Of a stretch of DNA of 64,000 bases, positions 3,355 through 58,711 are shown piece after piece. Both the position numbers and the translations under genes were made by a program. The stretch covers positions 1 to 64,000 of the forward strand of contig QUOL01000021.1 in the NCBI GenBank assembly GCA_009761415.1, given 5' to 3'. The stretch comes from Sarcomyxa edulis. Lineage: Eukaryota; Basidiomycota; Agaricomycetes; Agaricales; Mycenaceae. The notes under the pieces were generated by a model, which worked only from the letters and a program-made list of their open reading frames with translations, was not told the origin of the DNA and did not search any database. How positions within the stretch are numbered: the stretch's first letter is position 1; each line of letters begins with the position of its first letter.

Positions 3355-3409
3355 GAAATGACCTCGGGGTTAGTGGAATAGGGCGCCCTATTCCCGGATA
3401 AGAAACATA
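3355..3409 (+). repeat. M stub, 55 bp
   Basis: This stub has only the last 55 bases of a monomer, from GAAATGACC through the palindrome and tail. The intact monomer has TTGAAATGACC, so the G is shared. Confidence 0.9.
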
Positions 3410-6400
3410 GGGATTGCACGGCTGAAGGTTGGTCTGCCTTCTTGTCTTGCCTCTCAGAGTCAGTCTCTGTTTTTGTCGCAACTGATGCTTTGACCGTTCA
3501 CTTTGGTCTTGGTGTATGGTTGACGTCTTCTCCACTTCGATGGTTCCCTCTTTGATCCATGATTTTTTACTTTTCTCTCAGACACGTCTTGGTACTCGCT
3601 TTTGCATTCTTGGATGTTCCAAATAACAAGCCAGTGTCTTATTTGGAAAATGCTCTGGCTCCTACTGTTGTGTCAAAGAACGCCCTATTCCGTCACAGGA
3701 CGCCCTATTCCGTGACCGAACGCCCTATTCCGTCACAAAACACCCTATTCCGTGACATTTCGTGACTGAACGCCCTATTCCGTCACCTTTTTCGTCCGTT
3801 TTGCCTTGAAATGACCTCGGGGTTAGTGGAATAGGGCGCCCTATTCCCGGATAAGAAACATATGATCCGGTCGCTTCTCATAGCGTGACGCTGGGGTAGC
3901 TTGGAGTTGTTTCCTTGTCGTTTGTCGTAAATGAGCTCGGGGTTACTCGGGGTTATTTCTGTGCTGTTTGAGCTCGGGGTTACACGGGGTTATTTCCATG
4001 TCGTTTGAACTCGGGGTTACACGGGGTTATTTCCGTGTTGTTTCAGCTCGAAGTTACTCGGGGTTAGTTTGGACTCACTTGGTGTCGATGCTCCAAATAG
4101 TGGAGTGTCATCTTATTTGAAACATTGTAACCCTAAGTGTTCTTGCATCAGACTTGGTGTTGGTGACTCAGTTTCAAATAGTGGGACGTCGTCTTATTTG
4201 GAATGTGAGTCTGACTATGTTGACTTGATCCACAATTCATCTTAGACTTGGTGTTGGTGACTGGTGTTGGTGACTCAGTTTCAAATAGTGGGGCGTCATC
4301 TTATTTGGAATGTGGGTCTGACTGACTCTGTTGACTTGATCCACTATTGATCTTAGACTTGGTGTTGGTGACTTAGTTTCCAAATAGTGGGGTGCCGTCT
4401 TATGTGGAATGTGAGTCTGACTGACTATGTTGACTTGATCCACAATTGATTGTGATGCACATTTTATTTTTGAAACGGAAACGGTCGCTCGTTGACTTGT
4501 TTGAGATAGGTCGGTCGCTCACTTGACTGACTGTCTGACTATCTTGATTTTGTATGTGAGTTGATGTCTGCACTGACACTGACACTGACACTCTGACTCT
4601 GATACTAACTCGCACTTTTTTTTTATATGATCCTCAACCCTAACACCTAACACTAACCCAACGCCTAACACTAACCCTAACCGCCTAACTACCCCAACCC
4701 TAACGTCCCAGCTGGGGGGGTAGCGGCTGATTCCGATTACGGGTCTAACGGCTTCATCCCTGTTTTACTTGCGTTTTGACCGTTCTTTGTCTTGTATCGG
4801 TCTGTCCACTTCGATGGTTCCCTCTTTGATCTCATATTTTTGCGTCTCTGATGCATACACTTCATCTCGATCTTGGGGTTGCACGGCTGAAGGTTGATTG
4901 CCTTCTTGTCTTGCCTCTCAGAGTTGGTTTTTCGTTTTTGTCGCAACTGATGCTTTGACCGTTCACTTTGGTCTTGGTGTATGGTTGACGTCTTCTCCAC
5001 TTCGATGGTTCCCTCTTTGATCCATGATTTTTTACTTTTCTCTCAGACACGTCTTGGTACTCGCTTTTGCATTCTTGGATGTTCCAAATAACAAGCCAGT
5101 GTCTTATTTGGAAAATGCTCTGGCTCCTACTGTTGTGTCAAAGAACGCCCTATTCCGTCACAGGACGCCCTATTCCGTGACCGAACGCCCTATTCCGTCA
5201 CAAAACACCCTATTCCGTGACATTTCGTGACTGAACGCCCTATTCCGTCACCTTTTTCGTCCGTTTTGCCTTGAAATGACCTCGGGGTTAGTGGAATAGG
5301 GCGCCCTATTCCCGGATAAGAAACATATGATCCGGTCGCTTCTCATAGCGTGACGCTGGGGTAGCTTGGAGTTGTTTCCTTGTCGTTTGTCGTAAATGAG
5401 CTCGGGGTTACTCGGGGTTATTTCTGTGCTGTTTGAGCTCGGGGTTACACGGGGTTATTTCCATGTCGTTTGAACTCGGGGTTACACGGGGTTATTTCCG
5501 TGTTGTTTCAGCTCGAAGTTACTCGGGGTTAGTTTGGACTCACTTGGTGTCATAGTGGAGTGTCATCTCATTTGAAACATTGTAACTCTAAGCATCAGAC
5601 TTGGTGTTGGTGACTCAGTTTCCAAATAGTGGGATGTCGTCTTATTTGGAATGTGAGTCTGACTATGTTGACTTGATCCACAATTGATCTTAGACTTGGT
5701 GTTGGTGACTCAGTTTCAAATAGTGGGGTGTCGTCTTATTTGGAATGTGGGCTGTTAGAGTTTTCTTGGACTTGGTGTTGGTGACTCAGTTTCAAATAGT
5801 GGGATGTCGTCTTATTTGGAATGTGAGTCTGACTATGTTGACTTGATCCACAATTCATCTTAGACTTGGTGTTGGTGACTGGTGTTGGTGACTCAGTTTC
5901 AAATAGTGGGGCGTCATCTTATTTGGAATGTGGGTCTGACTGACTCTGTTGACTTGATCCACAATTGATCTTAGACTTGGTGTTGGTGACTTAGTTTCCA
6001 AATAGTGGGGTGCCGTCTTATGTGGAATGTGAGTCTGACTGACTATGTTGACTTGATCCACAATTGATTGTGACGCACATTTTATTTTTGAAACGGAAAC
6101 GGTCGCTCGTTGACTTGTTTGAGATAGGTTGGTTGCTCACTTGACTGACTGTCTGACTATCTTGATTTTGTATGTGAGTTGATGTCTGCACTGACACTGA
6201 CACTGACACTCTGACTCTGATACTAACTCGCACTTTTTTTTTATATGATCCTCAACCCTAACACCTAACACTAACCCTAACGCCTAACACTAACCCTAAC
6301 CGCCTAACTACCCCAACCCTAACGTCCCAGCTGGGGGGGTAGCGGCTGATTCCGATTACGGGTCTAACGGCTTCATCTCTGTTTCACTTGCGTTTTGACC

Positions 6401-7083
6401 GTTCTTTGTCTTGATCGTCTTGTATCGGTCTGTCCACTTCGATGGTTCGCTCTTTGATCTGATATTTTTGCGTCTCTGATGCATACACTTCATCTCGATC
6501 TTGGGATTGCACGGCTGAAGGTTGGTCTGCCTTCTTGTCTTGCCTCTCAGAGTCAGTCTCTGTTTTTGTCGCAACTGATGCGTTGACCGTTCACTTTGGT
6601 CTTTGTCTCGCGCTTGGTGGATGGTTGACGTCTTCTCCACTTCGATGGTTCCCTCTTTGATACCTGATTTTTACTTCTCACTCAGACACGCCTTGTCACT
6701 CGCTTTTGTGTTTTTTGATGTTTCCAAATAACAAGCCAGTGTCTTATTTGAAAAATGCTCTGGTTCCCTCTTTGATCCCTGATTTTTACTTGTCTCTCTC
6801 AGACACGTCTTGGTAGTCGCTTTTGCATTCTTGGATGTTCCAAATAACAAGCCAGTGTCTTATTTGGAAAATGCTCTGGCTCCTACTGTTGTGTCAAAGA
6901 ACGCCCTATTCCGTCACAGGACGCCCTATTCCGTGACCGAACGCCCTATTCCGTCACAAAACACCCTATTCCGTGACATTTCGTGACTGAACGCCCTATT
7001 CCGTCACCTTTTTCGTCCGTTTTGCCTTGAAATGACCTCGGGGTTAGTGGAATAGGGCGCCCTATTCCCGGATAAGAAACATA
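3410..7083 (+). repeat. M block: 453-bp piece + 1465 + 1756 bp monomers
   Basis: The pieces are 3410-3862, 3863-5327 and 5328-7083. The 1465-bp monomer differs from its 1467-bp relatives by two single-base losses, CGATGCTCC for CGATGGCTCC near 4089 and CCCAACG for CCCGAACG near 4650. This block opens the 14.2-kb duplication. Confidence 0.9.
6648..6878 (+). repeat. 115-bp tandem duplication specific to long monomers
   Basis: Copies 6648-6762 and 6763-6878 both run from GTTCCCTCTTTGAT to GCTCTG and have diverged at several bases. The duplication is present in the 1756- and 1561-bp monomers, together with an extra CTTGATCG upstream, and absent from the short class. Confidence 0.88.
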
Positions 7084-7697
7084 GGGGGGGTAGCGGCTGA
7101 TTCCGATTACGGGTCTAACGGCTTCATCCCTGTTTTACTTGCGTTTTGACCGTTCTTTGTCTTGTATCGGTCTGTCCACTTCGATGGTTCCCTCTTTGAT
7201 CTCATATTTTTGCGTCTCTGATGCATACACTTCATCTCGATCTTGGGGTTGCACGGCTGAAGGTTGATTGCCTTCTTGTCTTGCCTCTCAGAGTTGGTTT
7301 TTCGTTTTTGTCGCAACTGATGCTTTGACCGTTCACTTTGGTCTTGGTGTATGGTTGACGTCTTCTCCACTTCGATGGTTCCCTCTTTGATCCATGATTT
7401 TTTACTTTTCTCTCAGACACGTCTTGGTACTCGCTTTTGCATTCTTGGATGTTCCAAATAACAAGCCAGTGTCTTATTTGGAAAATGCTCTGGCTCCTAC
7501 TGTTGTGTCAAAGAACGCCCTATTCCGTCACAGGACGCCCTATTCCGTGACCGAACGCCCTATTCCGTCACAAAACACCCTATTCCGTGACATTTCGTGA
7601 CTGAACGCCCTATTCCGTCACCTTTTTCGTCCGTTTTGCCTTGAAATGACCTCGGGGTTAGTGGAATAGGGCGCCCTATTCCCGGATAAGAAACATA
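7084..7697 (+). repeat. M truncated piece, 614 bp, starting at the G7 box
   Basis: It starts within the G7 run of the core box. The same breakpoint recurs at 9775, 15532, 32595, 38863, 41554 and 47311. All but the independent-looking 32595 can be explained by block duplication. Confidence 0.9.
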
Positions 7698-9774
7698 GGT
7701 TCCCTCTTTGATCCATGATTTTTTACTTTTCTCTCAGACACGTCTTGGTACTCGCTTTTGCATTCTTGGATGTTCCAAATAACAAGCCAGTGTCTTATTT
7801 GGAAAATGCTCTGGCTCCTACTGTTGTGTCAAAGAACGCCCTATTCCGTCACAGGACGCCCTATTCCGTGACCGAACGCCCTATTCCGTCACAAAACACC
7901 CTATTCCGTGACATTTCGTGACTGAACGCCCTATTCCGTCACCTTTTTCGTCCGTTTTGCCTTGAAATGACCTCGGGGTTAGTGGAATAGGGCGCCCTAT
8001 TCCCGGATAAGAAACATATGATCCGGTCGCTTCTCATAGCGTGACGCTGGGGTAGCTTGGAGTTGTTTCCTTGTCGTTTGTCGTAAATGAGCTCGGGGTT
8101 ACTCGGGGTTATTTCTGTGCTGTTTGAGCTCGGGGTTACACGGGGTTATTTCCATGTCGTTTGAACTCGGGGTTACACGGGGTTATTTCCGTGTTGTTTC
8201 AGCTCGAAGTTACTCGGGGTTAGTTTGGACTCACTTGGTGTCATAGTGGAGTGTCATCTCATTTGAAACATTGTAACTCTAAGCATCAGACTTGGTGTTG
8301 GTGACTCAGTTTCCAAATAGTGGGATGTCGTCTTATTTGGAATGTGAGTCTGACTATGTTGACTTGATCCACAATTGATCTTAGACTTGGTGTTGGTGAC
8401 TCAGTTTCAAATAGTGGGGTGTCGTCTTATTTGGAATGTGGGCTGTTAGAGTTTTCTTGGACTTGGTGTTGGTGACTCAGTTTCAAATAGTGGGATGTCG
8501 TCTTATTTGGAATGTGAGTCTGACTATGTTGACTTGATCCACAATTCATCTTAGACTTGGTGTTGGTGACTGGTGTTGGTGACTCAGTTTCAAATAGTGG
8601 GGCGTCATCTTATTTGGAATGTGGGTCTGACTGACTCTGTTGACTTGATCCACAATTGATCTTAGACTTGGTGTTGGTGACTTAGTTTCCAAATAGTGGG
8701 GTGCCGTCTTATGTGGAATGTGAGTCTGACTGACTATGTTGACTTGATCCACAATTGATTGTGACGCACATTTTATTTTTGAAACGGAAACGGTCGCTCG
8801 TTGACTTGTTTGAGATAGGTTGGTTGCTCACTTGACTGACTGTCTGACTATCTTGATTTTGTATGTGAGTTGATGTCTGCACTGACACTGACACTGACAC
8901 TCTGACTCTGATACTAACTCGCACTTTTTTTTTATATGATCCTCAACCCTAACACCTAACACTAACCCTAACGCCTAACACTAACCCTAACCGCCTAACT
9001 ACCCCAACCCTAACGTCCCAGCTGGGGGGGTAGCGGCTGATTCCGATTACGGGTCTAACGGCTTCATCTCTGTTTCACTTGCGTTTTGACCGTTCTTTGT
9101 CTTGATCGTCTTGTATCGGTCTGTCCACTTCGATGGTTCGCTCTTTGATCTGATATTTTTGCGTCTCTGATGCATACACTTCATCTCGATCTTGGGATTG
9201 CACGGCTGAAGGTTGGTCTGCCTTCTTGTCTTGCCTCTCAGAGTCAGTCTCTGTTTTTGTCGCAACTGATGCGTTGACCGTTCACTTTGGTCTTTGTCTC
9301 GCGCTTGGTGGATGGTTGACGTCTTCTCCACTTCGATGGTTCCCTCTTTGATACCTGATTTTTACTTCTCACTCAGACACGCCTTGTCACTCGCTTTTGT
9401 GTTTTTTGATGTTTCCAAATAACAAGCCAGTGTCTTATTTGAAAAATGCTCTGGTTCCCTCTTTGATCCCTGATTTTTACTTGTCTCTCTCAGACACGTC
9501 TTGGTAGTCGCTTTTGCATTCTTGGATGTTCCAAATAACAAGCCAGTGTCTTATTTGGAAAATGCTCTGGCTCCTACTGTTGTGTCAAAGAACGCCCTAT
9601 TCCGTCACAGGACGCCCTATTCCGTGACCGAACGCCCTATTCCGTCACAAAACACCCTATTCCGTGACATTTCGTGACTGAACGCCCTATTCCGTCACCT
9701 TTTTCGTCCGTTTTGCCTTGAAATGACCTCGGGGTTAGTGGAATAGGGCGCCCTATTCCCGGATAAGAAACATA
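7698..9774 (+). repeat. M block: 321-bp piece + 1756-bp monomer
   Basis: The pieces are 7698-8018 and 8019-9774. 7698 starts the second copy of a 2691-bp tandem duplication (5007-7697 and 7698-10388). The left copy begins inside a monomer at the G of GGTTCCCTC. Confidence 0.9.
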
Positions 9775-11855
9775 GGGGGGGTAGCGGCTGATTCCGATTA
9801 CGGGTCTAACGGCTTCATCCCTGTTTTACTTGCGTTTTGACCGTTCTTTGTCTTGTATCGGTCTGTCCACTTCGATGGTTCCCTCTTTGATCTCATATTT
9901 TTGCGTCTCTGATGCATACACTTCATCTCGATCTTGGGGTTGCACGGCTGAAGGTTGATTGCCTTCTTGTCTTGCCTCTCAGAGTTGGTTTTTCGTTTTT
10001 GTCGCAACTGATGCTTTGACCGTTCACTTTGGTCTTGGTGTATGGTTGACGTCTTCTCCACTTCGATGGTTCCCTCTTTGATCCATGATTTTTTACTTTT
10101 CTCTCAGACACGTCTTGGTACTCGCTTTTGCATTCTTGGATGTTCCAAATAACAAGCCAGTGTCTTATTTGGAAAATGCTCTGGCTCCTACTGTTGTGTC
10201 AAAGAACGCCCTATTCCGTCACAGGACGCCCTATTCCGTGACCGAACGCCCTATTCCGTCACAAAACACCCTATTCCGTGACATTTCGTGACTGAACGCC
10301 CTATTCCGTCACCTTTTTCGTCCGTTTTGCCTTGAAATGACCTCGGGGTTAGTGGAATAGGGCGCCCTATTCCCGGATAAGAAACATATGATCCGGTCGC
10401 TTCTCATAGCGTGACGCTGGGGTAGCTTGGAGTTGTTTCCTTGTCGTTTGTCGTAAATGAGCTCGGGGTTACTCGGGGTTATTTCTGTGCTGTTTGAGCT
10501 CGGGGTTACACGGGGTTATTTCCATGTCGTTTGAACTCGGGGTTACACGGGGTTATTTCCGTGTTGTTTCAGCTCGAAGTTACTCGGGGTTAGTTTGGAC
10601 TCACTTGGTGTCGATGGCTCCAAATAGTGGAGTGTCATCTTATTTGAAACATTGTAACCCTAAGTGTTCTTGCATCAGACTTGGTGTTGGTGACTCAGTT
10701 TCAAATAGTGGGACGTCGTCTTATTTGGAATGTGAGTCTGACTATGTTGACTTGATCCACAATTCATCTTAGACTTGGTGTTGGTGACTGGTGTTGGTGA
10801 CTCAGTTTCAAATAGTGGGGCGTCATCTTATTTGGAATGTGGGTCTGACTGACTCTGTTGACTTGATCCACTATTGATCTTAGACTTGGTGTTGGTGACT
10901 TAGTTTCCAAATAGTGGGGTGCCGTCTTATGTGGAATGTGAGTCTGACTGACTATGTTGACTTGATCCACAATTGATTGTGATGCACATTTTATTTTTGA
11001 AACGGAAACGGTCGCTCGTTGACTTGTTTGAGATAGGTCGGTCGCTCACTTGACTGACTGTCTGACTATCTTGATTTTGTATGTGAGTTGATGTCTGCAC
11101 TGACACTGACACTGACACTCTGACTCTGATACTAACTCGCACTTTTTTTTTATATGATCCTCAACCCTAACACCTAACACTAACCCGAACGCCTAACACT
11201 AACCCTAACCGCCTAACTACCCCAACCCTAACGTCCCAGCTGGGGGGGTAGCGGCTGATTCCGATTACGGGTCTAACGGCTTCATCCCTGTTTTACTTGC
11301 GTTTTGACCGTTCTTTGTCTTGTATCGGTCTGTCCACTTCGATGGTTCCCTCTTTGATCTCATATTTTTGCGTCTCTGATGCATACACTTCATCTCGATC
11401 TTGGGGTTGCACGGCTGAAGGTTGATTGCCTTCTTGTCTTGCCTCTCAGAGTTGGTTTTTCGTTTTTGTCGCAACTGATGCTTTGACCGTTCACTTTGGT
11501 CTTGGTGTATGGTTGACGTCTTCTCCACTTCGATGGTTCCCTCTTTGATCCATGATTTTTTACTTTTCTCTCAGACACGTCTTGGTACTCGCTTTTGCAT
11601 TCTTGGATGTTCCAAATAACAAGCCAGTGTCTTATTTGGAAAATGCTCTGGCTCCTACTGTTGTGTCAAAGAACGCCCTATTCCGTCACAGGACGCCCTA
11701 TTCCGTGACCGAACGCCCTATTCCGTCACAAAACACCCTATTCCGTGACATTTCGTGACTGAACGCCCTATTCCGTCACCTTTTTCGTCCGTTTTGCCTT
11801 GAAATGACCTCGGGGTTAGTGGAATAGGGCGCCCTATTCCCGGATAAGAAACATA
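9775..11855 (+). repeat. M block: 614-bp piece + 1467-bp monomer
   Basis: The pieces are 9775-10388 and 10389-11855. The same 2081-bp arrangement recurs at 15532-17612, 41554-43634 and 47311-49391. Confidence 0.9.
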
Positions 11856-14800
11856 GGGATTGCACGGCTGAAGGTTGGTCTGCCTTCTTGTCTTGCCTCT
11901 CAGAGTCAGTCTCTGTTTTTGTCGCAACTGATGCTTTGACCGTTCACTTTGGTCTTGGTGTATGGTTGACGTCTTCTCCACTTCGATGGTTCCCTCTTTG
12001 ATCCATGATTTTTTACTTTTCTCTCAGACACGTCTTGGTACTCGCTTTTGCATTCTTGGATGTTCCAAATAACAAGCCAGTGTCTTATTTGGAAAATGCT
12101 CTGGCTCCTACTGTTGTGTCAAAGAACGCCCTATTCCGTCACAGGACGCCCTATTCCGTGACCGAACGCCCTATTCCGTCACAAAACACCCTATTCCGTG
12201 ACATTTCGTGACTGAACGCCCTATTCCGTCACCTTTTTCGTCCGTTTTGCCTTGAAATGACCTCGGGGTTAGTGGAATAGGGCGCCCTATTCCCGGATAA
12301 GAAACATATGATCCGGTCGCTTCTCATAGCGTGACGCTGGGGTAGCTTGGAGTTGTTTCCTTGTCGTTTGTCGTAAATGAGCTCGGGGTTACTCGGGGTT
12401 ATTTCTGTGCTGTTTGAGCTCGGGGTTACACGGGGTTATTTCCATGTCGTTTGAACTCGGGGTTACACGGGGTTATTTCCGTGTTGTTTCAGCTCGAAGT
12501 TACTCGGGGTTAGTTTGGACTCACTTGGTGTCGATGGCTCCAAATAGTGGAGTGTCATCTTATTTGAAACATTGTAACCCTAAGTGTTCTTGCATCAGAC
12601 TTGGTGTTGGTGACTCAGTTTCAAATAGTGGGACGTCGTCTTATTTGGAATGTGAGTCTGACTATGTTGACTTGATCCACAATTCATCTTAGACTTGGTG
12701 TTGGTGACTGGTGTTGGTGACTCAGTTTCAAATAGTGGGGCGTCATCTTATTTGGAATGTGGGTCTGACTGACTCTGTTGACTTGATCCACTATTGATCT
12801 TAGACTTGGTGTTGGTGACTTAGTTTCCAAATAGTGGGGTGCCGTCTTATGTGGAATGTGAGTCTGACTGACTATGTTGACTTGATCCACAATTGATTGT
12901 GATGCACATTTTATTTTTGAAACGGAAACGGTCGCTCGTTGACTTGTTTGAGATAGGTCGGTCGCTCACTTGACTGACTGTCTGACTATCTTGATTTTGT
13001 ATGTGAGTTGATGTCTGCACTGACACTGACACTGACACTCTGACTCTGATACTAACTCGCACTTTTTTTTTATATGATCCTCAACCCTAACACCTAACAC
13101 TAACCCGAACGCCTAACACTAACCCTAACCGCCTAACTACCCCAACCCTAACGTCCCAGCTGGGGGGGTAGCGGCTGATTCCGATTACGGGTCTAACGGC
13201 TTCATCCCTGTTTTACTTGCGTTTTGACCGTTCTTTGTCTTGTATCGGTCTGTCCACTTCGATGGTTCCCTCTTTGATCTCATATTTTTGCGTCTCTGAT
13301 GCATACACTTCATCTCGATCTTGGGGTTGCACGGCTGAAGGTTGATTGCCTTCTTGTCTTGCCTCTCAGAGTTGGTTTTTCGTTTTTGTCGCAACTGATG
13401 CTTTGACCGTTCACTTTGGTCTTGGTGTATGGTTGACGTCTTCTCCACTTCGATGGTTCCCTCTTTGATCCATGATTTTTTACTTTTCTCTCAGACACGT
13501 CTTGGTACTCGCTTTTGCATTCTTGGATGTTCCAAATAACAAGCCAGTGTCTTATTTGGAAAATGCTCTGGCTCCTACTGTTGTGTCAAAGAACGCCCTA
13601 TTCCGTCACAGGACGCCCTATTCCGTGACCGAACGCCCTATTCCGTCACAAAACACCCTATTCCGTGACATTTCGTGACTGAACGCCCTATTCCGTCACC
13701 TTTTTCGTCCGTTTTGCCTTGAAATGACCTCGGGGTTAGTGGAATAGGGCGCCCTATTCCCGGATAAGAAACATATGATCCGGTCGCTTCTCATAGCGTG
13801 ACGCTGGGGTAGCTTGGAGTTGTTTCCTTGTCGTTTGTCGTAAATGAGCTCGGGGTTACTCGGGGTTATTTCTGTGCTGTTTGAGCTCGGGGTTACACGG
13901 GGTTATTTCCATGTCGTTTGAACTCGGGGTTACACGGGGTTATTTCCGTGTTGTTTCAGCTCGAAGTTACTCGGGGTTAGTTTGGACTCACTTGGTGTCA
14001 TAGTGGAGTGTCATCTCATTTGAAACATTGTAACTCTAAGCATCAGACTTGGTGTTGGTGACTCAGTTTCCAAATAGTGGGATGTCGTCTTATTTGGAAT
14101 GTGAGTCTGACTATGTTGACTTGATCCACAATTGATCTTAGACTTGGTGTTGGTGACTCAGTTTCAAATAGTGGGGTGTCGTCTTATTTGGAATGTGGGC
14201 TGTTAGAGTTTTCTTGGACTTGGTGTTGGTGACTCAGTTTCAAATAGTGGGATGTCGTCTTATTTGGAATGTGAGTCTGACTATGTTGACTTGATCCACA
14301 ATTCATCTTAGACTTGGTGTTGGTGACTGGTGTTGGTGACTCAGTTTCAAATAGTGGGGCGTCATCTTATTTGGAATGTGGGTCTGACTGACTCTGTTGA
14401 CTTGATCCACAATTGATCTTAGACTTGGTGTTGGTGACTTAGTTTCCAAATAGTGGGGTGCCGTCTTATGTGGAATGTGAGTCTGACTGACTATGTTGAC
14501 TTGATCCACAATTGATTGTGACGCACATTTTATTTTTGAAACGGAAACGGTCGCTCGTTGACTTGTTTGAGATAGGTTGGTTGCTCACTTGACTGACTGT
14601 CTGACTATCTTGATTTTGTATGTGAGTTGATGTCTGCACTGACACTGACACTGACACTCTGACTCTGATACTAACTCGCACTTTTTTTTTATATGATCCT
14701 CAACCCTAACACCTAACACTAACCCTAACGCCTAACACTAACCCTAACCGCCTAACTACCCCAACCCTAACGTCCCAGCTGGGGGGGTAGCGGCTGATTC

Positions 14801-26321: not shown

Positions 26322-26334
26322 GATAAGAAACATA
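26322..26334 (+). repeat. M micro-stub, 13 bp (second copy)
   Basis: It is a duplicate of 18552-18564 carried in the 3.7-kb block. Confidence 0.8.
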
Positions 26335-46600: not shown

Positions 46601-47310
46601 CATCTCTGTTTCACTTGCGTTTTGACCGTTCTTTGTCTTGATCGTCTTGTATCGGTCTGTCCACTTCGATGGTTCGCTCTTTGATCTGATATTTTTGCGT
46701 CTCTGATGCATACACTTCATCTCGATCTTGGGATTGCACGGCTGAAGGTTGGTCTGCCTTCTTGTCTTGCCTCTCAGAGTCAGTCTCTGTTTTTGTCGCA
46801 ACTGATGCGTTGACCGTTCACTTTGGTCTTTGTCTCGCGCTTGGTGGATGGTTGACGTCTTCTCCACTTCGATGGTTCCCTCTTTGATACCTGATTTTTA
46901 CTTCTCACTCAGACACGCCTTGTCACTCGCTTTTGTGTTTTTTGATGTTTCCAAATAACAAGCCAGTGTCTTATTTGAAAAATGCTCTGGTTCCCTCTTT
47001 GATCCCTGATTTTTACTTGTCTCTCTCAGACACGTCTTGGTAGTCGCTTTTGCATTCTTGGATGTTCCAAATAACAAGCCAGTGTCTTATTTGGAAAATG
47101 CTCTGGCTCCTACTGTTGTGTCAAAGAACGCCCTATTCCGTCACAGGACGCCCTATTCCGTGACCGAACGCCCTATTCCGTCACAAAACACCCTATTCCG
47201 TGACATTTCGTGACTGAACGCCCTATTCCGTCACCTTTTTCGTCCGTTTTGCCTTGAAATGACCTCGGGGTTAGTGGAATAGGGCGCCCTATTCCCGGAT
47301 AAGAAACATA
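43635..47310 (+). repeat. M block: 453-bp piece + 1467 + 1756 bp monomers
   Basis: The pieces are 43635-44087, 44088-45554 and 45555-47310, the counterpart of 11856-15531. Confidence 0.9.
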
Positions 47311-49391
47311 GGGGGGGTAGCGGCTGATTCCGATTACGGGTCTAACGGCTTCATCCCTGTTTTACTTGCGTTTTGACCGTTCTTTGTCTTGTATCGGTCT
47401 GTCCACTTCGATGGTTCCCTCTTTGATCTCATATTTTTGCGTCTCTGATGCATACACTTCATCTCGATCTTGGGGTTGCACGGCTGAAGGTTGATTGCCT
47501 TCTTGTCTTGCCTCTCAGAGTTGGTTTTTCGTTTTTGTCGCAACTGATGCTTTGACCGTTCACTTTGGTCTTGGTGTATGGTTGACGTCTTCTCCACTTC
47601 GATGGTTCCCTCTTTGATCCATGATTTTTTACTTTTCTCTCAGACACGTCTTGGTACTCGCTTTTGCATTCTTGGATGTTCCAAATAACAAGCCAGTGTC
47701 TTATTTGGAAAATGCTCTGGCTCCTACTGTTGTGTCAAAGAACGCCCTATTCCGTCACAGGACGCCCTATTCCGTGACCGAACGCCCTATTCCGTCACAA
47801 AACACCCTATTCCGTGACATTTCGTGACTGAACGCCCTATTCCGTCACCTTTTTCGTCCGTTTTGCCTTGAAATGACCTCGGGGTTAGTGGAATAGGGCG
47901 CCCTATTCCCGGATAAGAAACATATGATCCGGTCGCTTCTCATAGCGTGACGCTGGGGTAGCTTGGAGTTGTTTCCTTGTCGTTTGTCGTAAATGAGCTC
48001 GGGGTTACTCGGGGTTATTTCTGTGCTGTTTGAGCTCGGGGTTACACGGGGTTATTTCCATGTCGTTTGAACTCGGGGTTACACGGGGTTATTTCCGTGT
48101 TGTTTCAGCTCGAAGTTACTCGGGGTTAGTTTGGACTCACTTGGTGTCGATGGCTCCAAATAGTGGAGTGTCATCTTATTTGAAACATTGTAACCCTAAG
48201 TGTTCTTGCATCAGACTTGGTGTTGGTGACTCAGTTTCAAATAGTGGGACGTCGTCTTATTTGGAATGTGAGTCTGACTATGTTGACTTGATCCACAATT
48301 CATCTTAGACTTGGTGTTGGTGACTGGTGTTGGTGACTCAGTTTCAAATAGTGGGGCGTCATCTTATTTGGAATGTGGGTCTGACTGACTCTGTTGACTT
48401 GATCCACTATTGATCTTAGACTTGGTGTTGGTGACTTAGTTTCCAAATAGTGGGGTGCCGTCTTATGTGGAATGTGAGTCTGACTGACTATGTTGACTTG
48501 ATCCACAATTGATTGTGATGCACATTTTATTTTTGAAACGGAAACGGTCGCTCGTTGACTTGTTTGAGATAGGTCGGTCGCTCACTTGACTGACTGTCTG
48601 ACTATCTTGATTTTGTATGTGAGTTGATGTCTGCACTGACACTGACACTGACACTCTGACTCTGATACTAACTCGCACTTTTTTTTTATATGATCCTCAA
48701 CCCTAACACCTAACACTAACCCGAACGCCTAACACTAACCCTAACCGCCTAACTACCCCAACCCTAACGTCCCAGCTGGGGGGGTAGCGGCTGATTCCGA
48801 TTACGGGTCTAACGGCTTCATCCCTGTTTTACTTGCGTTTTGACCGTTCTTTGTCTTGTATCGGTCTGTCCACTTCGATGGTTCCCTCTTTGATCTCATA
48901 TTTTTGCGTCTCTGATGCATACACTTCATCTCGATCTTGGGGTTGCACGGCTGAAGGTTGATTGCCTTCTTGTCTTGCCTCTCAGAGTTGGTTTTTCGTT
49001 TTTGTCGCAACTGATGCTTTGACCGTTCACTTTGGTCTTGGTGTATGGTTGACGTCTTCTCCACTTCGATGGTTCCCTCTTTGATCCATGATTTTTTACT
49101 TTTCTCTCAGACACGTCTTGGTACTCGCTTTTGCATTCTTGGATGTTCCAAATAACAAGCCAGTGTCTTATTTGGAAAATGCTCTGGCTCCTACTGTTGT
49201 GTCAAAGAACGCCCTATTCCGTCACAGGACGCCCTATTCCGTGACCGAACGCCCTATTCCGTCACAAAACACCCTATTCCGTGACATTTCGTGACTGAAC
49301 GCCCTATTCCGTCACCTTTTTCGTCCGTTTTGCCTTGAAATGACCTCGGGGTTAGTGGAATAGGGCGCCCTATTCCCGGATAAGAAACATA
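47311..49391 (+). repeat. M block: 614-bp piece + 1467-bp monomer
   Basis: The pieces are 47311-47924 and 47925-49391. The 14.2-kb duplication ends here, and the 8.5-kb duplication starts within the first piece at 47441. The two duplications therefore overlap in this copy. Confidence 0.9.
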
Positions 49392-49576
49392 GAACGCCCT
49401 ATTCCGTCACAGGACGCCCTATTCCGTGACCGAACGCCCTATTCCGTCACAAAACACCCTATTCCGTGACATTTCGTGACTGAACGCCCTATTCCGTCAC
49501 CTTTTTCGTCCGTTTTGCCTTGAAATGACCTCGGGGTTAGTGGAATAGGGCGCCCTATTCCCGGATAAGAAACATA
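49392..49576 (+). repeat. M stub, 185 bp (second copy)
   Basis: It matches 23292-23476 and is carried in the 8.5-kb duplication. Confidence 0.9.
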
Positions 49577-51482
49577 GTCTTGTATCGGTCTGTCCACTTC
49601 GATGGTTCCCTCTTTGATCTCATATTTTTGCGTCTCTGATGCATACACTTCATCGATCTTGGGGTTGCACGGCTGAAGGTTGATTGCCTTCTTGTCTTGC
49701 CTCTCAGAGTTGGTTTTTCGTTTTTGTCGCAACTGATGCTTTGACCGTTCACTTTGGTCTTGGTGTATGGTTGACGTCTTCTCCACTTCGATGGTTCCCT
49801 CTTTGATCCATGATTTTTTACTTTTCTCTCAGACACGTCTTGGTACTCGCTTTTGCATTCTTGGACGTTCCAAATAACAAGCCAGTGTCTTATTTGGAAA
49901 ATGCTCTGGCTCCTACTGTTGTGTCAAAGAACGCCCTATTCCGTCACAGGACGCCCTATTCCGTGACCGAACGCCCTATTCCGTCACAAAACACCCTATT
50001 CCGTGACATTTCGTGACTGAACGCCCTATTCCGTCACCTTTTTCGTCCGTTTTGCCTTGAAATGACCTCGGGGTTAGTGGAATAGGGCGCCCTATTCCCG
50101 GATAAGAAACATATGATCCGGTCGCTTCTCATGGCGTGACGCTGGGGTAGCTTGGAGTTGTTTCCTTGTCGTTTGTCGTAAATGAGCTCGGGGTTACTCG
50201 GGGTTATTTCTGTGCTGTTTGAGCTCGGGGTTACACGGGGTTATTTCCATGTCGTTTGAACTCGGGGTTACACGGGGTTATTTCCGTGTCGTTTCAGCTC
50301 GAAGTTACTCGGGGTTAGTTTGGACTCACTTGGTGTCGATGGCTCCAAATAGTGGAGTGTCATCTTATTTGAAACATTGTAACCCTAAGTGTTCTTGCAT
50401 CAGACTTGGTGTTGGTGACTCAGTTTCAAATAGTGGGATGTCGTCTTATTTGGAATGTGAGTCTGACTATGTTGACTTGATCCACAATTCATCTTAGACT
50501 TGGTGTTGGTGACTGGTGTTGGTGACTCAGTTTCAAATAGTGGGGCGTCATCTTATTTGGAATGTGGGTCTGACTGACTCTGTTGACTTGATCCACAATT
50601 GATTGTGATGCACATTTTATTTTTGAAACGGTCGCTCGTTGACTTGTTTGAGATAGATCGGTTGCTGACTTGACTGACTGTCTGATTTGATGTCTGCACT
50701 GATGCTGACTCTGACCTGCACTGATACTGACACTGACACTAACACTCTGACTCTGATACTAACTCGCACTTTTTTTTTATATGATCCTCAACCCTAACAC
50801 CTAACACTAACCCTAACGCCTAACACTAACCCTAACCGCCTAACTACCCCAACCCTAACGTCCCAGCTGGGGGGGTAGCGGCTGATTCCGATTACGGGTC
50901 TAACGGCTTCATCCCTGTTTTACTTGCGTTTTGACCGTTCTTTGTCTTGTATCGGTCTGTCCACTTCGATGGTTCCCTCTTTGATCTCATATTTTTGCGT
51001 CTCTGATGCATACACTTCATCTCGATCTTGGGGTTGCACGGCTGAAGGTTGATTGCCTTCTTGTCTTGCCTCTCAGAGTTGGTTTTTCGTTTTTGTCGCA
51101 ACTGATGCTTTGACCGTTCACTTTGGTCTTGGTGTATGGTTGACGTCTTCTCCACTTCGATGGTTCCCTCTTTGATCCATGATTTTTTACTTTTCTCTCA
51201 GACACGTCTTGGTAGTCGCTTTTGCATTCTTGGATGTTCCAAATAACAAGCCAGTGTCTTATTTGGAAAATGCTCTGGCTCCTACTGTTGTGTCAAAGAA
51301 CGCCCTATTCCGTCACAGGACGCCCTATTCCGTGACCGAACGCCCTATTCCGTCACAAAACACCCTATTCCGTGACATTTCGTGACTGAACGCCCTATTC
51401 CGTCACCTTTTTCGTCCGTTTTGCCTTGAAATGACCTCGGGGTTAGTGGAATAGGGCGCCCTATTCCCGGATAAGAAACATA
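49577..51482 (+). repeat. M block: 537-bp piece + 1369-bp monomer
   Basis: The pieces are 49577-50113 and 50114-51482, the counterpart of 23477-25382, including the CATCGATC deletion. Confidence 0.9.
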
Positions 51483-52421
51483 GTTTTGCGGTTAGCGGCT
51501 AATTCCGATTTCTTGTCTGAAGGCTTAATCCTAGTCTTTGTGCATAATCAGAGTAAACTCTGATTATAATAACACTGACTGCTAATATTGAAAACTTGAC
51601 CGTGGGAATATTTTGGAATGTGCATATACCATCATGACCGGAATCATGACATTTCATAACAAGGTTTTTTTCTTGAAATCTGTACTTCGAAACTGGTCTT
51701 ATACGGATAATGCAATTATAATGCTGTTAAATGCTTATTAATTCAAGCCAAATATTCCTGCAGGTTCATTGGCTGGACCGATGGACATGAAATTTTTTGA
51801 GGGTAGGCGTATGCATATTAAAACTATATTCCCAAAGTTTCAAGGTTGGCGCACACTATACAGGTGCTGGCGTAGCTATATAATGGGTGGAAAATAGGAA
51901 TTTGGGTGTAAACTGGCAATGGCGCAGAGGTATATACACAAAAAAATTTCTAAACTCTGCGGTAGTCAGCTCTGGACATATACGCTAGTATTTCAAAAGA
52001 AACCTAAGGATTTGGACGGATACCCGCGCCCTACGCTTAGATACAACTTTGGCATTCTGGCCAAAGTTAAATAGGCGGGTATAGGCTACGCCTTATATAT
52101 TTTTATGAATGGACTCTTGGGACGGGTCACCTGACCATGTACGCCAACCCTCATTTCAAAAAAAGTGGGTATATAGCAAGGCGTACCCAGGCGTAGCCTG
52201 TTCTTTCAGCCAAATCAGATTTCTGACACCTCTGGATGTTTGTGGCTGAAACCAAACAAAGGCAAACACATACACATCAGATTTTTGCATTTTCCGGAAG
52301 CCAAGAAGCATACGCTCATGACGGTATAACTTTTTTGACATATTGCATACGGGCGTAGCCAGGCGTAGCTTGAAACTTTCCAAGCCGGACAATGGGGCAT
52401 TGTCAAATTTCCCACCCATTA
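51483..52421 (+). mobile_element. Family X element, copy 3
   Basis: This 939-bp copy looks identical to copies 1 and 2 and lies in the third instance of the 3728-bp block (51483-55210). Confidence 0.85.
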
Positions 52422-52434
52422 GATAAGAAACATA
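52422..52434 (+). repeat. M micro-stub, 13 bp (third copy)
   Basis: It is carried in the 3728-bp block. Confidence 0.8.
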
Positions 52435-55210
52435 GACTTGGTGTTGGTGACTGGTGTTGGTGACTCAGTTTCAAATAGTGGGGCGTCATCTTATTTGGAA
52501 TGTGGGTCTGACTGACTCTGTTGACTTGATCCACAATTGATCTCAGACTTGGTGTTGGTGACTTAGTTTCCAAATAGTGGGGCGTCATCTTATTTGGAAT
52601 GTGAGTCTGACTGACTATGTTGACTTGATCCACAATTGATTGTGATGCACATTTTATTTTTGAAACGGTCGCTCGTTGACTTGTTTGAGATAGGTCGGTT
52701 GCTCACTTGACTGACTGTCTGACTATCTTGATTTTGTATGTGAGTTGATGTCTGCACTGACACTGACACTGACACTCTGACTCTGATACTAACTCGCACT
52801 TTTTTTTTATATGATCCTCAACCCTAACACCTAACACTAACCCTAACGCCTAACACTAACCCTAACCGCCTAACTACCCCAACCCTAACGTCCCAGCTGG
52901 GGGGGTAGCGGCTGATTCCGATTACGGGTCTAACGGCTTCATCCCTGTTTCACTTGCGTTTTGACCGTTCGTTGTCTTGATCGTCTTGTATCGGTCTGTC
53001 CACTTCGATGGTTCGCTCTTTGATCTGATATTTTTGCGTCTCTGATGCATACACTTCATCTCCATCTTGGGGTTGCACGGCTGAAGGTTGGTCTGCCTTC
53101 TTGTCTTGCCTCTCAGAGTCAGTCTCTGTTTTTGTCGCAACTGATGCGTTGACCGTTCACTTTGGTCTTTGTCTCGCGCTTGGTGGATGGTTGACGTCTT
53201 CTCCACTTCGATGGTTCCCTCTTTGATACCTGATTTTTACTTCTCACTCAGACACGTCTTGTCACTCGCTTTTGCGTTTTTTGATGTTTCCAAATAACAA
53301 GCCAGTGTCTTATTTGAAAAATGCTCTGGTTCCCTCTTTGATCCCTGATTTTTACTTGTCTCTCTCAGACACGTCTTGGTAGTCGCTTTTGCATTCTTGG
53401 ATGTTCCAAATAACAAGCCAGTGTCTTATTTGGAAAATGCTCTGGCTCCTACTGTTGTGTCAAAGAACGCCCTATTCCGTCACAGGACGCCCTATTCCGT
53501 GACCGAACGCCCTATTCCGTCACAAAACACCCTATTCCGTGACATTTCGTGACTGAACGCCCTATTCCGTCACCTTTTTCGTCCATTTTGCCTTGAAATG
53601 ACCTCGGGGTTAGTGGAATAGGGCGCCCTATTCCCGGATAAGAAACATATGATCCGGTCGCTTCTCATAGCGTGACGCTGGGGTAGCTTGGAGTTGTTTC
53701 CTTGTCGTTTGTCGTAAATGAGCTCGGGGTTACTCGGGGTTATTTCTGTGCTGTTTAAGCTCGGGGTTACACGGGGTTATTTCCGTGTTGTTTCAGCTCG
53801 GGGTTACTCGGGGTTAGTTTGGACTCACTTGGTGTCGATGGCTCCAAATAGTGGAGTGTCATCTTATTTGAAACATTGTAACCCTAAGTGTTCTTGCATC
53901 AGACTTGGTGTTGGTGACTCAGTTTCAAATAGTGGGATGTCGTCTTATTTGGAATGTGAGTCTGACTATGTTGACTTGATCCACAATTCATCTTAGACTT
54001 GGTGTTGGTGACTGGTGTTGGTGACTCAGTTTCAAATAGTGGGGCGTCATCTTATTTGGAATGTGGGTCTGACTGACTCTGTTGACTTGATCCACAATTG
54101 ATCTCAGACTTGGTGTTGGTGACTTAGTTTCCAAATAGTGGGGCGTCATCTTATTTGGAATGTGAGTCTGACTGACTATGTTGACTTGATCCACAATTGA
54201 TTGTGATGCACATTTTATTTTTGAAACGGTCGCTCGTTGACTTGTTTGAGATAGGTCGGTTGCTCACTTGACTGACTGTCTGACTATCTTGATTTTGTAT
54301 GTGAGTTGATGTCTGCACTGACACTGACACTGACACTCTGACTCTGATACTAACTCGCACTTTTTTTTTATATGATCCTCAACCCTAACACCTAACACTA
54401 ACCCTAACGCCTAACACTAACCCTAACCGCCTAACTACCCCAACCCTAACGTCCCAGCTGGGGGGGTAGCGGCTGATTCCGATTACGGGTCTAACGGCTT
54501 CATCCCTGTTTCACTTGCGTTTTGACCGTTCGTTGTCTTGATCGTCTTGTATCGGTCTGTCCACTTCGATGGTTCGCTCTTTGATCTGATATTTTTGCGT
54601 CTCTGATGCATACACTTCATCTCCATCTTGGGGTTGCACGGCTGAAGGTTGGTCTGCCTTCTTGTCTTGCCTCTCAGAGTCAGTCTCTGTTTTTGTCGCA
54701 ACTGATGCGTTGACCGTTCACTTTGGTCTTTGTCTCGCGCTTGGTGGATGGTTGACGTCTTCTCCACTTCGATGGTTCCCTCTTTGATACCTGATTTTTA
54801 CTTCTCACTCAGACACGTCTTGTCACTCGCTTTTGCGTTTTTTGATGTTTCCAAATAACAAGCCAGTGTCTTATTTGAAAAATGCTCTGGTTCCCTCTTT
54901 GATCCCTGATTTTTACTTGTCTCTCTCAGACACGTCTTGGTAGTCGCTTTTGCATTCTTGGATGTTCCAAATAACAAGCCAGTGTCTTATTTGGAAAATG
55001 CTCTGGCTCCTACTGTTGTGTCAAAGAACGCCCTATTCCGTCACAGGACGCCCTATTCCGTGACCGAACGCCCTATTCCGTCACAAAACACCCTATTCCG
55101 TGACATTTCGTGACTGAACGCCCTATTCCGTCACCTTTTTCGTCCATTTTGCCTTGAAATGACCTCGGGGTTAGTGGAATAGGGCGCCCTATTCCCGGAT
55201 AAGAAACATA
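52435..55210 (+). repeat. M block: 1215-bp piece + 1561-bp monomer
   Basis: The pieces are 52435-53649 and 53650-55210, matching 18565-21340 and 26335-29110. Confidence 0.9.
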
Positions 55211-57495
55211 GGGTCTAACGGCTTCATCCCTGTTTCACTTGCGTTTTGACCGTTCGTTGTCTTGATCGTCTTGTATCGGTCTGTCCACTTCGATGGTTCG
55301 CTCTTTGATCTGATATTTTTGCGTCTCTGATGCATACACTTCATCTCCATCTTGGGGTTGCACGGCTGAAGGTTGGTCTGCCTTCTTGTCTTGCCTCTCA
55401 GAGTCAGTCTCTGTTTTTGTCGCAACTGATGCGTTGACCGTTCACTTTGGTCTTTGTCTCGCGCTTGGTGGATGGTTGACGTCTTCTCCACTTCGATGGT
55501 TCCCTCTTTGATACCTGATTTTTACTTCTCACTCAGACACGTCTTGTCACTCGCTTTTGCGTTTTTTGATGTTTCCAAATAACAAGCCAGTGTCTTATTT
55601 GAAAAATGCTCTGGTTCCCTCTTTGATCCCTGATTTTTACTTGTCTCTCTCAGACACGTCTTGGTAGTCGCTTTTGCATTCTTGGATGTTCCAAATAACA
55701 AGCCAGTGTCTTATTTGGAAAATGCTCTGGCTCCTACTGTTGTGTCAAAGAACGCCCTATTCCGTCACAGGACGCCCTATTCCGTGACCGAACGCCCTAT
55801 TCCGTCACAAAACACCCTATTCCGTGACATTTCGTGACTGAACGCCCTATTCCGTCACCTTTTTCGTCCATTTTGCCTTGAAATGACCTCGGGGTTAGTG
55901 GAATAGGGCGCCCTATTCCCGGATAAGAAACATATGATCCGGTCGCTTCTCATAGCGTGACGCTGGGGTAGCTTGGAGTTGTTTCCTTGTCGTTTGTCGT
56001 AAATGAGCTCGGGGTTACTCGGGGTTATTTCTGTGCTGTTTAAGCTCGGGGTTACACGGGGTTATTTCCGTGTTGTTTCAGCTCGGGGTTACTCGGGGTT
56101 AGTTTGGACTCACTTGGTGTCGATGGCTCCAAATAGTGGAGTGTCATCTTATTTGAAACATTGTAACCCTAAGTGTTCTTGCATCAGACTTGGTGTTGGT
56201 GACTCAGTTTCAAATAGTGGGATGTCGTCTTATTTGGAATGTGAGTCTGACTATGTTGACTTGATCCACAATTCATCTTAGACTTGGTGTTGGTGACTGG
56301 TGTTGGTGACTCAGTTTCAAATAGTGGGGCGTCATCTTATTTGGAATGTGGGTCTGACTGACTCTGTTGACTTGATCCACAATTGATCTCAGACTTGGTG
56401 TTGGTGACTTAGTTTCCAAATAGTGGGGCGTCATCTTATTTGGAATGTGAGTCTGACTGACTATGTTGACTTGATCCACAATTGATTGTGATGCACATTT
56501 TATTTTTGAAACGGTCGCTCGTTGACTTGTTTGAGATAGGTCGGTTGCTCACTTGACTGACTGTCTGACTATCTTGATTTTGTATGTGAGTTGATGTCTG
56601 CACTGACACTGACACTGACACTCTGACTCTGATACTAACTCGCACTTTTTTTTTATATGATCCTCAACCCTAACACCTAACACTAACCCTAACGCCTAAC
56701 ACTAACCCTAACCGCCTAACTACCCCAACCCTAACGTCCCAGCTGGGGGGGTAGCGGCTGATTCCGATTACGGGTCTAACGGCTTCATCCCTGTTTCACT
56801 TGCGTTTTGACCGTTCGTTGTCTTGATCGTCTTGTATCGGTCTGTCCACTTCGATGGTTCGCTCTTTGATCTGATATTTTTGCGTCTCTGATGCATACAC
56901 TTCATCTCCATCTTGGGGTTGCACGGCTGAAGGTTGGTCTGCCTTCTTGTCTTGCCTCTCAGAGTCAGTCTCTGTTTTTGTCGCAACTGATGCGTTGACC
57001 GTTCACTTTGGTCTTTGTCTCGCGCTTGGTGGATGGTTGACGTCTTCTCCACTTCGATGGTTCCCTCTTTGATACCTGATTTTTACTTCTCACTCAGACA
57101 CGTCTTGTCACTCGCTTTTGCGTTTTTTGATGTTTCCAAATAACAAGCCAGTGTCTTATTTGAAAAATGCTCTGGTTCCCTCTTTGATCCCTGATTTTTA
57201 CTTGTCTCTCTCAGACACGTCTTGGTAGTCGCTTTTGCATTCTTGGATGTTCCAAATAACAAGCCAGTGTCTTATTTGGAAAATGCTCTGGCTCCTACTG
57301 TTGTGTCAAAGAACGCCCTATTCCGTCACAGGACGCCCTATTCCGTGACCGAACGCCCTATTCCGTCACAAAACACCCTATTCCGTGACATTTCGTGACT
57401 GAACGCCCTATTCCGTCACCTTTTTCGTCCATTTTGCCTTGAAATGACCTCGGGGTTAGTGGAATAGGGCGCCCTATTCCCGGATAAGAAACATA
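55211..57495 (+). repeat. M block: 724-bp piece + 1561-bp monomer
   Basis: The pieces are 55211-55934 and 55935-57495. The first piece ends the 8.5-kb duplication. Here it reads through into a full monomer, whereas its partner at 29834 meets a truncated piece. Confidence 0.9.
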
Positions 57496-58710
57496 GACTT
57501 GGTGTTGGTGACTGGTGTTGGTGACTCAGTTTCAAATAGTGGGGCGTCATCTTATTTGGAATGTGGGTCTGACTGACTCTGTTGACTTGATCCACAATTG
57601 ATCTCAGACTTGGTGTTGGTGACTTAGTTTCCAAATAGTGGGGCGTCATCTTATTTGGAATGTGAGTCTGACTGACTATGTTGACTTGATCCACAATTGA
57701 TTGTGATGCACATTTTATTTTTGAAACGGTCGCTCGTTGACTTGTTTGAGATAGGTCGGTTGCTCACTTGACTGACTGTCTGACTATCTTGATTTTGTAT
57801 GTGAGTTGATGTCTGCACTGACACTGACACTGACACTCTGACTCTGATACTAACTCGCACTTTTTTTTTATATGATCCTCAACCCTAACACCTAACACTA
57901 ACCCTAACGCCTAACACTAACCCTAACCGCCTAACTACCCCAACCCTAACGTCCCAGCTGGGGGGGTAGCGGCTGATTCCGATTACGGGTCTAACGGCTT
58001 CATCCCTGTTTCACTTGCGTTTTGACCGTTCGTTGTCTTGATCGTCTTGTATCGGTCTGTCCACTTCGATGGTTCGCTCTTTGATCTGATATTTTTGCGT
58101 CTCTGATGCATACACTTCATCTCCATCTTGGGGTTGCACGGCTGAAGGTTGGTCTGCCTTCTTGTCTTGCCTCTCAGAGTCAGTCTCTGTTTTTGTCGCA
58201 ACTGATGCGTTGACCGTTCACTTTGGTCTTTGTCTCGCGCTTGGTGGATGGTTGACGTCTTCTCCACTTCGATGGTTCCCTCTTTGATACCTGATTTTTA
58301 CTTCTCACTCAGACACGTCTTGTCACTCGCTTTTGCGTTTTTTGATGTTTCCAAATAACAAGCCAGTGTCTTATTTGAAAAATGCTCTGGTTCCCTCTTT
58401 GATCCCTGATTTTTACTTGTCTCTCTCAGACACGTCTTGGTAGTCGCTTTTGCATTCTTGGATGTTCCAAATAACAAGCCAGTGTCTTATTTGGAAAATG
58501 CTCTGGCTCCTACTGTTGTGTCAAAGAACGCCCTATTCCGTCACAGGACGCCCTATTCCGTGACCGAACGCCCTATTCCGTCACAAAACACCCTATTCCG
58601 TGACATTTCGTGACTGAACGCCCTATTCCGTCACCTTTTTCGTCCATTTTGCCTTGAAATGACCTCGGGGTTAGTGGAATAGGGCGCCCTATTCCCGGAT
58701 AAGAAACATA
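57496..58710 (+). repeat. M truncated piece, 1215 bp, at the array's inner edge
   Basis: It starts at TAG-ACTTGGTG, like 18565. Its tail ends at 58710 directly against non-repeat DNA beginning GTGCCGTTGG. It is the first piece laid down if growth was leftward. Confidence 0.92.
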
Positions 58711-58711
58711 G

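What the first reader, a model, noticed from the sequence alone, without database searches (positions are those of the whole stretch)
3355..58711. Every truncated join carries a shared G
I compared 14 distinct breakpoints, 13 in M and one in X (13, 55, 60, 71, 185, 302-equivalent, 321, 453, 484, 537, 614, 724, 984 and 1062/1215 bp from the right end). In each, the base just left of the breakpoint in the intact copy is G, matching the G after ATA at the join. The overlap is AG at 23292 and TAG at 18565 and 29835. With random bases, 14 of 14 would occur about once in 270 million. One reading is that an RNA ending ATAG is primed by a DNA 3' end terminating in C, or CTA, so 1-3 base pairs set each join.
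Basis: partly seen in the sequence, partly recalled or inferred. Interest (0 to 1): 0.85.

Follow-up and report, generated by a model that had tools for sequence, protein, structure and literature searches.

The report
RNA-primed patches on worn chromosome ends
In a mushroom-type fungus, chromosome ends carry piled-up non-coding elements whose fixed right end is almost always joined to a worn end at a shared G, as if an RNA ending in ATAG had been copied onto broken DNA through one to five base pairs.

Summary
The window is the left end of a contig. GATAAGAAACATA occurs 265 times in the genome; all 100 places that one search lists (of 265) lie within about 62 kb of a contig end with the fixed right end pointing inward, and 185 of 265 are followed by G. 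The letters I could fetch hold 102 distinct joins from three families (M, N, X): next base G in 98, T in 2 (M's own full-length starts), A in 2. Of 73 G-joins with a recognisable parent, the parental base is G in 71; after merging, 63 of 65, P about 3e-38. Overlap runs past G more often than chance: >=2 nt in 24 of 63 (9-13 expected), >=3 nt in 12 of 63 (3-4 expected). That favours annealing of a 3' end ...ATAG (X...TTAG) over a mere taste for G. Best explanation: non-autonomous elements reverse-transcribed onto eroded ends, possibly by an endonuclease-less Penelope-type enzyme found at the same ends. Telomeric G-strands lack C, so the rule would exclude capped ends. The RNA intermediate and the enzyme are inferred.

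The parts
1..58710 (+). Head-to-tail array of M units (and three X copies); right ends complete, left ends variable
   Evidence: 58 of 58 segments between ends keep the complete right end
19780..21340 (+). One full-length M unit (1561 bp); other lengths 1514 (327-1840), about 1466, 1369 and 1756 (5328-7083)
20510..20580 (+). Degenerate telomere-like tract (AACCCTAACACCTAAC...) inside the M unit, after ATATGATCC
   Evidence: telomere caps of C15 and C37 continue into this tract
58676..58711 (+). M right end: 20-bp palindrome (58676-58695) and 16-nt tail CGGATAAGAAACATAG, joined at the G to DNA without a known parent
3355..3355 (+). Join G, 55-bp remnant
   Evidence: parent GCCTTG
3410..3410 (+). 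Join G, 453-bp remnant (also 11856, 33209, 35187, 43635)
   Evidence: parent ATCTTG
7084..7084 (+). Join G, 614-bp remnant (7 places)
   Evidence: parent CAGCTG
7698..7698 (+). Join G, 321-bp remnant (also 39477)
   Evidence: parent TCGATG
17613..18551 (+). X element, left-truncated, joined to M at G; further copies start at 25383 and 51483
   Evidence: parent TCCTAG in one fetched copy
18518..18534 (+). X hairpin GACAATGGGGCATTGTC, followed by an 18-nt tail ending TTAG
18552..18564 (+). 13-bp remnant of M's right end joined to X's ...CCCATTA at a shared G (also 26322, 52422)
   Evidence: parent CCCGG
18565..18565 (+). Join with TAG overlap (5 places with this start)
   Evidence: parent TCTTAG
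21341..21341 (+). Join G, 484-bp remnant
   Evidence: parent TTTGCG
23292..23292 (+). Join with AG overlap, 185-bp remnant (also 49392)
   Evidence: parent TCAAAG by the longer match
23477..23477 (+). Join G, 537-bp remnant (also 49577)
   Evidence: parent TCTTTG
29111..29111 (+). Join G, 724-bp remnant (also 31881, 55211)
   Evidence: parent ATTACG
29835..29835 (+). Join with TAG overlap, 984-bp remnant
   Evidence: parent TGTTAG
35127..35127 (+). Join G, 60-bp remnant
   Evidence: parent GTTTTG
63120..63155 (+). N right end: palindrome 63120-63139, tail AGGATCAGAAGGATAG, joined at G to a 71-bp X remnant
63226..63508 (+). M remnant joined to X at G (63226), and itself joined at G (63508) to DNA without a known parent

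Best explanation
M, N and X are non-coding elements added to exposed chromosome ends by reverse transcription. Their RNA has a fixed, untailed 3' end (...AUAG in M and N, ...UUAG in X) behind a hairpin. An end that has lost its telomere erodes; its 3' strand is nibbled a few bases until a C, better C-T-A(-T), can pair with that RNA end. Reverse transcription then extends the chromosome. Left truncation arises because copying stops early or because the end erodes again before the next addition. Telomerase can cap later, sometimes on the element's own telomere-like tract. Shown: fixed right ends, inward orientation at the places listed, shared G, matches extending past G, avoidance of inner G-run positions. 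Inferred: the RNA, the nibbling, the enzyme. The best enzyme candidate here is Y, a Penelope-type reverse transcriptase without a recognisable endonuclease, at the same ends.
For: All 100 listed of 265 M ends sit near contig ends, + at left and - at right. 58 of 58 window segments keep the right end. G shared in 71 of 73, 63 of 65 merged. Overlap >=2 in 24 of 63 and >=3 in 12 of 63, above both null models. The same rule holds for N (21 of 21 distinct joins G) and X (8 of 9). Joins also go to DNA unrelated to the elements (58711, 63508). Stacked remnants of 14 and 29 bp at C7. C9 shows worn M, telomere repeats, truncated Y, then M added on Y at a shared AG. The R2 reverse transcriptase jumps best onto a template when 1 or at most 2 nt of DNA 3' overhang match the template 3' end (PMC8857657, passages).
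Against: No RNA, transcript end or enzyme activity was seen. Full-length joins (24 of 59 in the window) lack the G, and two distinct A-joins exist. Y's own 3' end sits on telomere repeats, not on the G rule, so Y as driver is uncertain; the genome has 111 RVT_1 matches. For M parents alone the overlap excess is weak: 11 of 41 at >=2 (5.0 expected, p 0.009), 4 of 41 at >=3 (1.8, p 0.10). The mean distance to the previous G (5.27) fits neither simple breakage model exactly (3.38, 7.07). M and N 3' ends are homologous, so the end has only two visibly unrelated versions.
Confidence: 0.68

Rival explanations
1. Linear DNA copies of the elements with a defined right end (perhaps a 1-nt 3' overhang) are joined to broken chromosome ends by microhomology end joining; no RNA step.
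For: Overlap of 1-5 nt at nearly every join is also what end joining could leave; the right-end palindrome could be a cut or protein site.
Against: Ordinary end joining should give many joins without overlap, and overlaps at varied donor positions; here 71 of 73 keep the same last donor base and the donor end is constant.
Confidence: 0.17
2. The element ends at ATA and the addition machinery simply demands a target that begins with G (3' end C), without pairing.
For: G is the only near-constant base: 63 of 65 merged breakpoints.
Against: Bases left of the G match the donor end more often than expected under two null models. One C7 join keeps the G although its best-matching parents have A.
Confidence: 0.1
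3. The array is an ordinary subtelomeric satellite shaped by unequal exchange; the joins are old deletion points multiplied by copying.
For: Large duplicated blocks and uniform full-length joins in the window show that such exchange also occurs.
Against: It does not fix one donor end in each of three families joined to unrelated DNA, nor predict a shared G.
Confidence: 0.03

Closest known systems
Drosophila HeT-A/TART/TAHRE telomeric retrotransposons (PMC4700185 and PMC5537684, passages read)
   Same: Head-to-tail arrays on chromosome ends, elements thought to be added at the 3' OH of the end; HeT-A has no reverse transcriptase of its own.
   Different: Here telomerase-type repeats are also present, no open reading frame was recognised in M, no poly(A) at the join, and the join is set by a shared G. 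(Poly(A) in HeT-A is recalled.)
Endonuclease-deficient Penelope-like elements such as Athena (PMC5537684 passages; the 2007 primary paper is not held; the fungal name Coprina is recalled)
   Same: Y looks like one; 3' end inward, mostly 5'-truncated copies, telomere repeats at its 3' end. M shares an ATGATCC plus telomere-like tract module with Y (read directly).
   Different: M, N and X show no reverse transcriptase and join at non-telomeric G, not at telomere repeats.
MoTeR and FoTeR telomere-targeted non-LTR retrotransposons of fungi (PMC8381367, PMC12857005, passages read)
   Same: Fungal chromosome ends, truncated copies, neighbouring RecQ-type helicase genes.
   Different: Those lie next to telomere repeats and encode a restriction-like endonuclease; none of the 102 distinct joins here enters plain telomere repeats.
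R2 reverse transcriptase template jumping (PMC8857657, passages read)
   Same: Works best with a 1- or at most 2-nt 3' DNA overhang complementary to the template's 3' end.
   Different: In vitro, with another enzyme; here a genomic record of joins with overlap up to 5.

Membership tests
Telomeric retrotransposon arrays (HeT-A type, by working) | Fixed 3' end toward the chromosome interior, at chromosome ends only | tested here: met
   100 of 100 listed places (of 265) in inward orientation within about 62 kb of a contig end
Telomeric retrotransposon arrays (HeT-A type, by working) | 5' truncation with complete 3' ends | tested here: met
   58 of 58 window segments right-complete
Telomeric retrotransposon arrays (HeT-A type, by working) | RNA intermediate | not testable with these tools
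   no transcript data
Endonuclease-deficient Penelope-like elements | Encodes a Penelope-type reverse transcriptase | tested here: not met
   The 899-aa frame Y is a separate element; all seven matches to it lie outside the window; no frame like it was seen in M, N or X letters
Endonuclease-deficient Penelope-like elements | 3' end attached to telomere repeats | tested here: not met
   0 of 102 distinct M/N/X joins enter plain CCCTAA repeats; Y itself does
Helitron | 3' hairpin close to a CTRR end | tested here: inconclusive
   Hairpin 16-18 nt before the end is present, but the ends are ATAG/TTAG, not CTRR (motif recalled); no search for the Helitron protein was made
Telomerase RNA | Match to a known telomerase RNA family | tested here: not met
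   Rfam scans of window 16000-22000 and of five loci: only weak Ocean-VII matches far below its gathering score
MoTeR/FoTeR type | Inserted in telomere repeats with a restriction-like endonuclease | tested here: not met
   Joins are at non-telomeric G; no coding frame recognised in M; the endonuclease itself was not searched for genome-wide

The most novel reading that the evidence does not exclude
A second chromosome-end repair route works beside telomerase: structured non-coding RNAs ending in UAG are copied onto ends whose 3' strand can expose a C. Because the telomeric G-strand contains no C, this rule by itself tells an uncapped end from a capped one. The patch brings along a telomere-like tract that telomerase can later extend (4 of 8 contig-terminal caps read begin in such a tract: C15, C23, C37, C39).
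Probability: 0.3. Interest if true: 0.9.

Novelty: new variant of a known kind. Interest (0 to 1): 0.74.

Why it matters
How reverse transcriptases choose free DNA ends in cells is hard to see. Here one genome keeps dozens of distinct joins that record the priming step: a nearly obligatory G:C pair, optional further pairs, and signs of short trimming. If confirmed it would explain how such elements avoid capped telomeres and give a simple readout of end erosion in a fungus that also has telomerase-type repeats.

Tried and rejected
Target preference without pairing: disfavoured by the overlap excess. Annealing with equal use of every G: rejected by G-run avoidance. Plain satellite exchange: rejected for the truncated joins, kept for the large duplicated blocks. 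Telomerase RNA or another known RNA: no Rfam family near threshold in the stretches scanned (best Ocean-VII, 17.7 bits against 53.5). An H/ACA-like end (ACA three bases from M's end) was considered and dropped because N and X lack it (read directly). Folding of the right ends: M z -1.5, N z -2.1, X z +0.7; M and N are homologous there, so a structural requirement is not shown. Whether telomere caps also follow a G rule: seven caps outside element tracts were read (C12, C13, C18, C38 terminal; C3, C9, C19 internal). Their first non-telomeric base is often G, but that count is biased because the telomere C-strand has no G, and of the three with a recognisable parent (C9, C12, C19) two show telomere-type overlap; nothing is claimed. 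A 17-base N-like end at C21 and C28 (L070, L072) lies in a diverged copy; where it lies on its chromosome was not settled. Species: not identified; Y and the helicase have named relatives in Lentinula, Armillaria, Agrocybe and other mushrooms. Pfam found no domain in Y itself and weak RVT_1, under the curated cut-off, in two of three relatives; no solved structure matched by sequence; the Penelope reading of Y rests on recalled motifs in the alignment. Literature: nine completed searches listed nothing that I saw describing a shared-G rule; I saw listings and, for six papers, passages (for PMC10088271 two passages); three look-ups for the main Penelope and MoTeR papers found them not held.
Full report
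WHAT IS THERE. The window is the first 64 kb of contig C14 of a 35.6-Mb, 40-contig genome. Bases 1-58710 are a head-to-tail array of M units, with three X copies. Units keep one right end...GGATAAGAAACATA, and differ at the left. All 58 segments between ends keep the right end complete. Two further families share the plan: N ends ...AGGATCAGAAGGATAG and X ends ...CCCATTAG, each 16-18 nt after a hairpin. M and N are homologous in their last 75 nt; X is not visibly so. There are therefore two visibly unrelated 3' ends, not three.

GENOME-WIDE. GATAAGAAACATA occurs 140 times forward and 125 times reverse; the reversed control pattern occurs 0 times. The call lists 100 of the 265 places; all 100 lie within about 62 kb of a contig end, + at left ends and - at right ends (contig lengths). 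So the fixed end points inward wherever I could see it. 185 of 265 are followed by G. Several contig ends also carry plain (CCCTAA)n caps, so the genome has telomerase-type telomeres.

THE SHARED G. In the window 35 of 59 M ends are followed by G and 24 by T, the T cases all being the unit's own start TGATCC. The window has 17 distinct G-joins over the three families; 15 have a known parent and all 15 have G there. In all letters fetched, 102 joins are distinct by their next 16 bases: M 69 G, 2 T, 1 A; N 21 G; X 8 G, 1 A. Joins with fewer than 26 bases behind them were dropped. For 73 of the 98 G-joins a parental copy not preceded by a family end was found; its base at the join is G in 71 and A in 2 (70 of 72 by the stricter match). 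Merging breakpoints equal in their neighbouring bases leaves 65, of which 63 are G, against 22.6% G in a unit, P about 3e-38. The other 25 G-joins and the two T-joins go to DNA without a recognisable parent and cannot be tested this way. Most of the unlisted places outside the window were not read.

PAIRING, NOT ONLY A TASTE FOR G. If the element simply sought targets starting with G, bases further left would not resemble the donor end. They do. Overlap lengths in the 73 are 0: 2, 1: 42, 2: 15, 3: 7, 4: 4, 5: 3. In the 63 merged G-joins >=2 nt occurs 24 times (expected 9.4 if any G is equally likely, 12.8 if the first G from a random break is used) and >=3 nt 12 times (2.9, 4.4); fewer than 2 in 1000 draws reach this under either model. 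For M-type parents alone the effect is weaker: 11 of 41 against 5.0 (p 0.009) and 4 of 41 against 1.8 (p 0.10).

TRIMMING. Inside runs of G the shared G is nearly always the leftmost: 4 of 63 have G to the left, against 15.7 for equal use of all Gs and 3.6 for 'first G met from a random break'. The mean distance to the previous G (5.27) lies between the two models (3.38, 7.07) and fits neither exactly. My reading is that the 3' strand is shortened by a few bases until a C can pair. This is inference.

EXCEPTIONS. X joined to AACACC... at two places (C38, C29) shares an A instead. One M join at C40 continues with A to a sequence whose parent I could not settle. The G-join at C7:716893 has best-matching parents with A. 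The frequent full-length joins ATA|TGATCC could be pairing one to three bases inside the end (A, TA or ATA) with the last G unpaired or missing, or tandem amplification of few events; the data do not decide.

WHO DOES IT. At C34's right end an 899-aa open frame, Y, has 291 homologs at E <= 0.001 among the 7996 candidates scored, some from named mushrooms, and conserved blocks that I recognise from memory as Penelope-type; no Pfam model hit Y itself. Y has seven matches in the genome, six of them partial; five of them (C1, C3, C9, C19, C34) lie within about 26 kb of a right contig end, and for C33 and C35 the contig length was not looked up. Its 3' end sits on CCCTAA repeats at two places in C9 and apparently in C19. 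At C9 one reads, from inside outward: a worn M, about 66 bp of telomere repeats, a truncated Y, then a new M joined to Y at a shared AG. Y's 3' region and M both contain ATGATCC followed by a degenerate telomere-like tract. This makes Y a plausible driver, not a shown one. The genome has many other reverse transcriptases (111 RVT_1 matches, some apparently mitochondrial).

CONSEQUENCE. The telomeric G-strand has no C, so a 3'-C requirement would keep these elements off intact telomeres. None of the 102 distinct joins enters plain repeats; the one that comes close, X to GCTAACCCTAACGC, enters Y's degenerate tract with the G in the parent. Of eight contig-terminal caps read (C12, C13, C15, C18, C23, C37, C38, C39), four run straight into a telomere-like tract of an element (C15, C37: M; C23, C39: what looks like a related family). 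So element tracts seem to serve as seeds for telomerase, among other sites.

KNOWN SYSTEMS. By working this resembles HeT-A arrays, endonuclease-free Penelope elements and R2 template jumping. By membership it meets the end-location and truncation features of telomeric retrotransposon arrays; it does not meet the tested features of Penelope elements or of MoTeR/FoTeR. I class it as a new variant of terminal retroelement addition.

Noticed in passing
L040 (C7:715700-725699), about 5500-10000: Frames resembling a subtelomeric RecQ-type (telomere-linked) helicase with C2H2-like parts; relatives in Agrocybe, Armillaria, Hebeloma and other mushrooms.
   Followed up: partly
L040 1-340 (C7:715700-716040): Remnants of M's right end as short as 14 and 29 bp are stacked, each joined with G: serial erosion and re-addition in miniature.
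   Followed up: partly
L041 (C9:676501-686500): Layered record: worn M, about 66 bp of telomere repeats, truncated Y, new M; a second Y 3' end on telomere repeats lies nearby.
   Followed up: partly
L122 (C34:2524290-2527060): Intact 899-aa Penelope-type reverse transcriptase frame whose outer end is capped directly by telomere repeats.
   Followed up: partly
window 20491-20585, 61880-61910; L041; L130: A module of T-run, ATGATCC, then a degenerate telomere-like tract recurs in M, in an older element at 61.9 kb, in Y and in a C38 element; its role is unknown.
   Followed up: no
window 3409-47310 and 17612-53649: Large near-identical duplicated blocks (offsets about 7.8, 26.1 and 31.8 kb), so most repeated joins in the window are not independent.
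   Followed up: partly
L070 and L072 (C21:76333, C28:34642): Two loci share a diverged N-like copy ending CCAGGATCAGAAGGATA followed by G, with other DNA on both sides; position on the chromosome unknown.
   Followed up: no
L124, L129, L128, L131 (C15, C37, C23, C39 ends): Telomere caps continue directly into element-borne telomere-like tracts.
   Followed up: partly
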